Below are positions 27,554-29,389 of a DNA stretch of 54,991 nucleotides, in pieces. This DNA comes from Desulfurobacterium pacificum (lineage in GTDB: Bacteria > Aquificota > Aquificia > Desulfurobacteriales > Desulfurobacteriaceae), in NCBI RefSeq assembly GCF_900182835.1, contig NZ_FXUB01000001.1, positions 621,954-676,944 of the forward strand, written 5' to 3'. The first letter of the stretch is position 1; each line of letters opens with the position of its first letter. The translations under genes were made by a program, and so were the position numbers. The notes beneath the pieces are model-generated. The model was not told where the DNA came from, did not search any database, and saw only the letters and a list, made by a program, of their open reading frames with translations.

Positions 27554-27631
<78 letters not shown>

Positions 27632-27681: not shown

Positions 27682-27780
27682 CTATTCAGAAACGTTAAGT
27701 TTTCCTCCTTTTCCCAAACAACCTTCAACTTTTTGCGCTTTATACTGCTTCAAAGCTCTTACCATATTATTGTAAGCATC
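27682..27780 (-). pseudogene. C-terminal part of a small gene broken by the TnpB element
   Basis: Directly beyond the right end of the TnpB element an open frame continues for 32 codons: DAYNNMVRALKQYKAQKVEG, then CLGKGGKLNVSE and TAG. It has no start of its own at its 5' end. Joined to the open frame beyond the left end of the element (29312-29389) with the element removed, it makes an uninterrupted 58-codon ORF. The family is not recognised; it is lysine-rich with one Cys. Confidence 0.5.
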
Positions 27781-27930
27781 TGTGAACTACCTACCACTAA
27801 AGTCGTAGGCTTCTGAGGGAGTTTGGTAGGTTACACCTACCCTTATCCCTCCAGGCGGGTTCACTCCGCCCTCTACTCCTATCCCTGCATGCAGCAGAGA
27901 TTCGGAGATACCTTCACTGAACTTATAGAC
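27761..27930 (-). ncRNA. predicted omega-RNA (TnpB guide RNA) at the right end
   Basis: TnpB elements make a guide RNA from the 3' end of tnpB and the right end, with the guide taken from the flanking DNA. Here the right-end hairpin CCTAC...GTAGG (27790-27809) overlaps the last codons of tnpB, and the next 16-20 nt past TTCAC (27761-27781) would be the guide. The 5' boundary is an estimate and nothing beyond the hairpin was folded. This is inference from the family. Confidence 0.45.
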
Positions 27931-29311
27931 TCTTATCTTCACTACATTCTTAAGTCCCGTTACAAGATCAAACCACTTCTTCTTGAACTTCCTCAAGATG
28001 TTTCTTGCTCCGTTAACATCCGCATTGATGAGTCCTTTTATCGGCGATAAGAAAAGTCCCCTCTTTATCCTCCTACCGTTACCCTTACTCTTTTTCGTAA
28101 CTCCTGCTTCCCTGTCGCAGGAGTCGGCAACGGAAGTATAGCTCTCATCTATCAGTTTTACTTCTATACCTAATTCTTTAAGCTTGTAGGTTAAGTATTC
28201 CGTTACTTTCCCGTGAGGTAACAGCTTGAACATCTGATTCACAAGGTCAGGTAGATTGCTCTCTTTGTTCTTTGATTCCTGAACTTTCCCTATCACTACC
28301 GTTTTGACGTTGTATAAAACTGCAAGTCTTGTTATGAGATTGCTTACTTTGTGTGCGTAGTCTCTTAAAAGGTTCTTAACGCTTTTCCAGAGTTTATGAA
28401 GTTTCTTTTCTAACTGAATTGTCGGAAGTCCTTTGTTTTTTAGGTTGTCAAGTCTTTTTTGCAGGTTGGCTATTTTCTTAAGTTTTTTTCTGAGAAGTGT
28501 CTTTAATCCTCTCCCGTCTATGATGTAAGAAACAGGATTTCCCTCTATCACGCAGGTTGCAAAGTTTGATATCCCATAGTCTATTGCTAATACTTTGTCT
28601 CCTTTAGCTTCAACTTCGGGAACTTCTCTTTCATACACTACCACCAGTTTAAAACTTATTTGACCGTAGGATTTATACGGAACTACTTGAACATTAAGAA
28701 CTTCAAGGTTCTTTAAATCCTTATACCCCGTCTCCATCCACAAGTATTCAGGAAAAAATCCAAATTTTTTGAGCAGGTGTTCTTTTAAGTTTTTTGAGAG
28801 TGAGAGTCTTATCCCGCTTCCTTCAATCTTGAATCCTGTTTTGTCCCAAGTTACTACTCTGTGAGGTGTTTCGGGATTTACGTAACTTGGTGGTTTGACG
28901 GTTTCTATTCCCTTCTTTTTGAATTTTTCGGGATTTTCTAAAAACTTGAAAAAGTTTTTCCATCCTCTTGACAGTTCGTCAAGAACTATCTGAGCAGAGC
29001 GGGACTGTAGGGAACGCAGGTGTAAGGATGTGTCCTTGAGTTTGTTATACAGGTCTCTGTAATCTGGTTTTGCTAACTTGTTTCTTACGAGGTAGTTAGC
29101 TTGATTCCAAAGTCTTCCAGCGTGGTAGGTGAGGTATCCGAGGATTACCTGCTGTTCTGTACTTAAGTGCTTTAGCTCAAAAACTATCGCTTTTTTTGCT
29201 TTCATCTTATCACTCAAGGTAAGTTATCGCTGAGTCAAAGTCAACACCCCTTTGGGATGTCGGGCTGTATCCCCACTTTAAAAAACGGGGTTTTAGTCTG
29301 GCGTTTTTCTA
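27781..29311 (-). mobile_element. tnpB-only IS200/IS605-type (IS1341-like) element
   Basis: The element has tnpB but no tnpA transposase, so it cannot move without help. The right end is a hairpin ending at TTCAC(A) (27781). Near the left end are the hairpin CCCC...GGGG (29271-29290) and a second dyad (CCCAAAGGGG region, 29246-29258). There are no terminal inverted repeats or target duplications, as expected. The boundaries are set by rebuilding the interrupted ORF on both sides and may shift by one base because A is shared. Confidence 0.7.
27787..29205 (-). CDS. tnpB: TnpB RNA-guided nuclease, IS1341-like
   Basis: TnpB is the ancestor-like relative of Cas12. The 472-residue protein (ATG 29205; a TTG at 29217 is possible) has an N-terminal helical domain and a RuvC core. 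RuvC-I is AIDYGISN (D209) and RuvC-III is LINADVNGARNILRK (D396). The usual RuvC-II Glu is missing at VVIGK, but a Glu stands in LIDESYTS (E354), as in TnpBs with a rearranged active site. The zinc ribbon keeps only one Cys (C363) of four. The stop lies in the right-end hairpin (YDFSGR then stop). Confidence 0.88.
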   Translation of the reverse strand: MKAKKAIVFELKHLSTEQQVILGYLTYHAGRLWNQANYLVRNKLAKPDYRDLYNKLKDTSLHLRSLQSRSAQIVLDELSRGWKNFFKFLENPEKFKKKGIETVKPPSYVNPETPHRVVTWDKTGFKIEGSGIRLSLSKNLKEHLLKKFGFFPEYLWMETGYKDLKNLEVLNVQVVPYKSYGQISFKLVVVYEREVPEVEAKGDKVLAIDYGISNFATCVIEGNPVSYIIDGRGLKTLLRKKLKKIANLQKRLDNLKNKGLPTIQLEKKLHKLWKSVKNLLRDYAHKVSNLITRLAVLYNVKTVVIGKVQESKNKESNLPDLVNQMFKLLPHGKVTEYLTYKLKELGIEVKLIDESYTSVADSCDREAGVTKKSKGNGRRIKRGLFLSPIKGLINADVNGARNILRKFKKKWFDLVTGLKNVVKIRVYKFSEGISESLLHAGIGVEGGVNPPGGIRVGVTYQTPSEAYDFSGR

Positions 29312-29389
29312 TAAAAACAAAGTGCAGATTACAGAAGTTACAAAAAATAAAAATCCCCCCTTCAAAATACCCGAAAACCAAGTTTTCAT
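29312..29389 (-). pseudogene. N-terminal part of the small gene broken by the TnpB element
   Basis: Starting at ATG 29389 after GGGGTGG, the frame reads MKTWFSGILKGGFLFFVTSV then ICTLFL, which looks like a signal anchor. It meets TAG at the left end of the TnpB element. Joining codon TTA (29312-29314) to GAT (27780) past the element gives a 58-residue protein with one membrane segment and a basic C-terminal tail. The same stretch (29218-29514) otherwise holds only the element's left-end hairpins and the promoter of the next plus-strand gene. Confidence 0.5.

What the first reader, a model, noticed from the sequence alone, without database searches (positions are those of the whole stretch)
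27682..29389. TnpB element inserted into a 58-codon membrane-protein gene; exact reconstruction
Left of the element an ORF starts with a signal-anchor (MKTWFSGILKGGFLFFVTSV) and stops at its edge; right of it an open frame without start continues (DAYNNMVRALKQYKAQKVEG). Removing 27781-29311 joins TTA to GAT and makes one clean ORF of 58 codons. This fixes the element ends to within one base, shows the empty target site, and predicts the target-adjacent motif (GTTTTTA at the left) and the guide (27761-27780).
Basis: seen in the sequence. Interest (0 to 1): 0.6.

Follow-up and report, generated by a model that had tools for sequence, protein, structure and literature searches.

The report
tnpB transposon; rebuilt ORF not supported

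Summary
The element is real: a single-copy, tnpA-less IS200/IS605-type insertion of about 1.53 kb with an intact-looking TnpB (476 aa) and a well-supported right-end omega RNA, beside tRNA-Glu in a Desulfurobacteriaceae (Aquificota) genome. Eleven left ends all read [C/T]TTAT|AGAAAA; the base after the right end GTAGTTCAC varies, so it is flank. Three independent insertions (hemW/TPR overlap, cutA, an IS256 gene) keep length, frame and conserved residues only if the 5-nt motif YTTAT stays in the empty site. For the window this gives element 27782-29310, TAM TTTAT (29311-29315) and a guide starting at 27781. The empty site is then TTTTTAT|AGATGC, with TAG after codon 26, so the 58-codon ORF is not reconstructed. 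It also has no homologue in 136 Aquificota genomes or IMG/VR and no counterpart beside tRNA-Glu in the relatives examined, and a spanning ORF that long arises in 14% of simulated flanks. No empty allele of this very site was found. Verdict: new member of a known kind. By-product: ~400-nt tnpB-less relatives that keep the omega RNA; most also carry a conserved ~170-nt structured segment.

The parts
27782..29310 (-). the transposon (1529 bp): AGAAAAAC...GTAGTTCAC
   Evidence: ends aligned with sister copies, boundary fixed by insertions in hemW/TPR, cutA and IS256 genes
29311..29315 (-). target-adjacent motif TTTAT (family consensus YTTAT)
   Evidence: 11 of 11 left ends preceded by TTAT, with T (9) or C (2) before it
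29235..29310 (-). left end with palindromic segment, conserved in sisters including tnpB-less ones
27787..29217 (-). tnpB, 476 codons from TTG (ATG at 29205 is the more likely start); D213, E358, D400 kept
   Evidence: Pfam, NCBIfam and alignment of nine homologues
27782..27916 (-). omega RNA scaffold, overlapping the 3' end of tnpB
   Evidence: fold z -5.6; 17 of 40 pairs with changes on both sides; sub-threshold Rfam sot0042 match
27762..27781 (-). predicted guide AGATGCTTACAATAATATGG (the first 16 nt end at 27766)
   Evidence: position after GTTCAC; guide length by analogy with ISDra2 (PMC8612924)
   Evidence: present; no homologue; not coding-like
   Evidence: present; coding-like by codon usage; no homologue
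27554..27631 (-). tRNA-Glu (ttc), neighbour of the insertion

Best explanation
A tnpA-less member of an IS200/IS605-type TnpB element family inserted 3' of a TTTAT motif between tRNA-Glu and a divergently transcribed gene. By analogy with ISDra2 it was mobilised by a Y1 TnpA supplied in trans (or by one since lost), without target duplication, and TnpB, guided by the right-end omega RNA plus about 16-20 nt of flank (AGATGCTTACAATAATATGG), would cut the empty site so that the element is copied back. The true ends are 27782-29310, so the empty site does not hold the 58-codon ORF. Shown by sequence: ends, YTTAT motif, omega RNA structure, intact tnpB, no convincing tnpA in this genome. Inferred: cleavage, repair, mobilisation in trans, and the application of the sister rule to this copy.
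For: TnpB by Pfam and NCBIfam; RuvC residues invariant in nine homologues; sister copies with Y1 TnpA; 11 left ends YTTAT|AGAAAA, variable base after GTTCAC; boundary rule from hemW/TPR, cutA and IS256 insertions; covarying omega RNA; no tnpA beyond E 0.05 in the genome.
Against: No empty allele of this very site is available; the same-genus genome has another IS there. The L065 flanks are too diverged to test the length exactly. The terminal omega RNA hairpin of the window copy has a G-G mismatch. The TnpB structure model failed.
Confidence: 0.85

Rival explanations
1. One reading: the element is 27781-29311 (or the equivalent 27782-29312) and interrupted a real 58-codon small membrane-protein gene.
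For: The join gives one clean ORF with a signal-anchor-like N-terminus; the right half scores as coding.
Against: The same rule applied to sisters breaks hemW/TPR and cutA and is two bases short in IS256; no homologue in 136 Aquificota genomes or IMG/VR; chance of such an ORF is 14%.
Confidence: 0.1
2. The element interrupted a different frame that crosses the corrected join: TTG start, MVFGYFEGGIFIFCNFCNLHFVFI|DAYNNMVRALKQYKAQKVEGCLGKGGKLNVSE.
For: The frame is open across TTTAT|AGATGC and includes the coding-like right half.
Against: Only a TTG start, left part not coding-like, no homologue of the right half.
Confidence: 0.1
3. TnpB here is a stationary, domesticated gene rather than part of a mobile element.
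For: Single copy, no tnpA in the genome, intact ORF.
Against: Both transposon ends and the TAM are kept, and close relatives (77-91% identical) sit at different loci and in other phyla.
Confidence: 0.08

Closest known systems
ISDra2 of Deinococcus radiodurans (IS200/IS605; TAM TTGAT; PMC8612924)
   Same: TnpB, right-end RNA overlapping the 3' end of tnpB, insertion 3' of a 5-nt motif without target duplication, guide taken from the flank
   Different: No tnpA in the window copy; TAM YTTAT; zinc-finger cysteines lost and catalytic glutamate probably at the alternative position
TnpBs with rearranged RuvC2 glutamate (Ealt) described with Fanzor-related TnpBs (PMC10711439)
   Same: Canonical glutamate absent (VVIG), invariant glutamate E358 just before the zinc-finger position
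   Different: D-Y-G rather than DPG motif; zinc finger absent; assignment by motif only
Rfam RF02656 sot0042 (sense overlapping transcript)
   Same: Its RNA model matches the right ends of the window element and of its sisters at E 1e-6 to 2e-2
   Different: All matches are far below the gathering score (22-36 bits against 88)
PATE-like ends-only derivatives of IS605 elements (PMC7290912)
   Same: The ~400-nt sisters have both ends and no transposon protein
   Different: They keep a covarying omega RNA, and most have an extra conserved structured segment

Membership tests
IS200/IS605 family element | TnpB/OrfB protein | tested here: met
   PF01385, PF07282, TIGR01766, NF040570 above cut-off
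IS200/IS605 family element | Y1 (HUH) TnpA | tested here: not met
   Absent from the window copy and no convincing match in the genome (best E 0.05); present in sisters L057 and L058. tnpB-only members exist in the family (PMC8612924)
IS200/IS605 family element | Insertion 3' of a fixed short motif without target duplication | tested here: met
   11 of 11 YTTAT; three sister insertions restore genes without gain or loss
RNA-guided TnpB | RuvC D-E-D residues | tested here: met
   D213, E358 (alternative position, by motif) and D400 invariant in nine homologues
RNA-guided TnpB | Structured right-end RNA ending at the element end | tested here: met
RNA-guided TnpB | RNA-guided cleavage next to the TAM | not testable with these tools
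   needs a biochemical or plasmid assay
Interrupted 58-codon membrane-protein gene | Uninterrupted homologue in relatives | tested here: not met
   none in 61 relatives, 136 Aquificota genomes or IMG/VR
Interrupted 58-codon membrane-protein gene | Empty site restores the frame under the boundary rule of sister copies | tested here: not met
   TTT TTA TAG at the join

The most novel reading that the evidence does not exclude
The ~400-nt tnpB-less sister elements (L130, L131, L133, L134; variant L065) are not debris but mobile units whose omega RNA, each with its own guide, is used in trans by TnpB of the full elements, while the conserved ~170-nt structured RNA segment that replaces tnpB in most of them adds a function of its own.
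Probability: 0.2. Interest if true: 0.5.

Novelty: new member of a known kind. Interest (0 to 1): 0.22.

Why it matters
It gives a TnpB family from presumed thermophiles with a TAM (YTTAT), an RNA scaffold and a guide that can be tested directly. It also shows that rebuilding an empty site by asking what makes an ORF can be wrong by one base, and that sister insertions in conserved genes are the better ruler.

Tried and rejected
Direct empty-site search in the only same-genus genome (the contig runs into another IS end) and in other genera (different sequence upstream of tRNA-Glu). TAM YTTA, or YTT with the A in the element: rejected because the base after TTCAC varies and hemW, cutA and IS256 do not fit. 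The flanks of L125, L064 and L133 were too diverged to read an empty site, and L065 fits only roughly. The AlphaFold model of TnpB was unusable (pLDDT 42), so no fold search was run. Rfam at gathering threshold finds only the tRNA.

Full report
WHAT IS THERE. On the minus strand, 29389-29312 reads MKTWFSGILKGGFLFFVTSVICTLFL and then TAG; 27780-27685 reads DAYNNMVRALKQYKAQKVEGCLGKGGKLNVSE and then TAG at 27682-27684. Between them lies a tnpB gene of 476 codons (27787-29217; ATG at 29205 is the more likely start). Downstream is tRNA-Glu (27554-27631). Cutting out 27781-29311 does make a 58-codon ORF.

THE PROTEIN. It passes the NCBIfam model NF040570 'guided_TnpB' (141.5 bits, cut-off 100) and Pfam OrfB_IS605 and Cas12f1-like_TNB. 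Its PDB sequence relatives are annotated as an IS605 OrfB protein and a designed RNA-guided nuclease. In nine homologues D213 (IDYG) and D400 (NADVNGARN) are invariant. At the canonical glutamate position the family has VVIG; E314 and E319 nearby are not conserved, but E358 (IDESYTS) is invariant. PMC10711439 describes an alternative glutamate, 'Ealt', six residues before the zinc finger, and E358 sits at about that place. This is an assignment by motif, not by structure: the model had pLDDT 42. The zinc-finger cysteines are gone except C367.

COPIES. The genome has one copy and no convincing TnpA. Close relatives, up to 90% identical, occur in other genera of the family; six of 22 genomes, this one included, have a match. 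MAGs labelled Desulfobacterales, Ca. Desulfofervidaceae and Deltaproteobacteria carry 77-83% identical ones, which suggests transfer between phyla, or binning errors in the MAGs. L057 and L058 also have a Y1 TnpA between the left end and tnpB, Pfam-confirmed for L057; the window copy, L063 and L066 lack it. The family is named Desulfurobacteriaceae by the record title of L098, the same locus as L057.

ENDS. A pattern for the left end that leaves the preceding bases free found 11 true left ends; all are preceded by TTAT, with T (9) or C (2) before it. The right ends finish GTAGTTCAC; the next base is T, A, C or G in different copies, so it belongs to the flank. That leaves the question whether the empty site keeps YTT, YTTA or YTTAT. 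Three insertions decide it. (a) L134 lies where a TPR-like gene overlaps the start of hemW. The closest relative reads CCATTTAAATCTCTATACG, and the stop of the first gene and the hemW frame both depend on the length. Joining with YTTAT gives CCATATAAATCTCTATACG: same length, stop TAA restored, hemW reading ...PYKSLYVHVPFC. The other joins fuse or shift the genes. (b) L130 lies at the start of cutA. Relatives begin MENFIQV, MEKYIQV or MEKFI. Only the YTTAT join gives ...FIQVFTTT; the others give a stop or FL. (c) L060 lies in a remnant of a transposase gene that looks like IS256 (family named from memory). The intact gene has ATTTCTCTTTGAACC (15 nt) and the YTTAT join gives ATTTCTTATTGAATC (15 nt); the others are one or two bases short. 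In addition, both relatives of the L065 site have CTTAT. So the element is AGAAAA...GTTCAC, inserted 3' of YTTAT without duplication or loss, as ISDra2 does with its 5-nt TTGAT (PMC8612924).

CONSEQUENCE. In the window the element is 27782-29310, the TAM is TTTAT (29311-29315), and the guide starts at 27781: AGATGCTTACAATAATATGG. The empty site is TTTTTAT|AGATGC, and the left ORF ends there: TTT TTA TAG. The 58-codon ORF exists only if one base is dropped. A frame does run across the corrected join (...HFVFI|DAYNNMVRALK...), but only from a TTG, and its left part does not look coding. In Markov-simulated flanks a spanning ORF of at least 58 codons turns up in 14% of trials. The protein found no homologue in 61 relatives, 136 Aquificota genomes or IMG/VR and nothing in Pfam or PHROGs. 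In the only same-genus genome the sequence upstream of tRNA-Glu is the end of another IS, and in three other genomes of the family it is unrelated. That a gene was interrupted is therefore unsupported, though an empty allele of this very site has not been seen.

OMEGA RNA. The last 135 nt fold at -60.7 kcal/mol (z -5.6). Across 19 right ends, 17 of 40 consensus pairs show changes on both sides that keep the pair, including wholesale exchange of two hairpins. Rfam sot0042, a sense overlapping transcript, matches below threshold. The window copy has one G-G mismatch in the terminal hairpin that its sisters lack.

HOW IT WORKS (inference from ISDra2). TnpA, supplied from elsewhere or since lost, peels the element out as a single strand and leaves TTTAT joined to AGATGC. 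TnpB with the omega RNA recognises TTTAT and the 16-20 nt that follow and cuts the empty copy, which is repaired from the filled one. Shown by sequence: ends, motif, RNA, protein. Inferred: cleavage, repair, mobilisation in trans.

SIDE FINDING. Five complete elements of about 390-421 nt (L065, L130, L131, L133, L134) have both ends and the omega RNA but no tnpB. In four of them, and in the fragments L113 and L067, tnpB is replaced by a segment of about 172 nt that is very similar across three genera (G002, G003, G010), without similarity to the full-length elements, and predicted to be highly structured (only 3 covarying pairs because the copies are so alike). L065 has a different inner part. 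PATE-like ends-only derivatives are known (PMC7290912), but a retained, covarying omega RNA suggests that these carry usable guides.

LIMITS. One sister copy (L131) lies in a gene that looks like MazF/PemK; it was left out of the junction test once recognised. One search had already printed its two 150-nt flanks one after the other.

Noticed in passing
L130, L131, L133, L134 (390-405 nt each); L065:1217-1637 (421 nt): tnpB-less elements with both ends and a covarying omega RNA; four of them (and fragments L113, L067) share a conserved, predicted highly structured ~172-nt segment found in three genera and in no Rfam family searched.
   Followed up: partly
window 27787-29217; alignment A1: This TnpB family lacks the canonical RuvC glutamate and the zinc-finger cysteines but keeps an invariant glutamate (E358) near the alternative position.
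   Followed up: partly
L099-L102, L105 (MAGs labelled Ca. Desulfofervidaceae, Desulfobacterales, Deltaproteobacteria): 77-85% identical TnpBs outside Aquificota, pointing to transfer between phyla or to MAG binning errors.
   Followed up: no
   Followed up: no
G003, at least 20 places listed (left flank of L130): A sequence of about 30 nt (TGACATCTTTTATATCATCTCC...) is scattered over the genome in many near-identical copies.
   Followed up: no
L058, right end: The right end is followed by a second GTAGTTCAC 15 nt downstream, as if a second right-end tip were left there.
   Followed up: no
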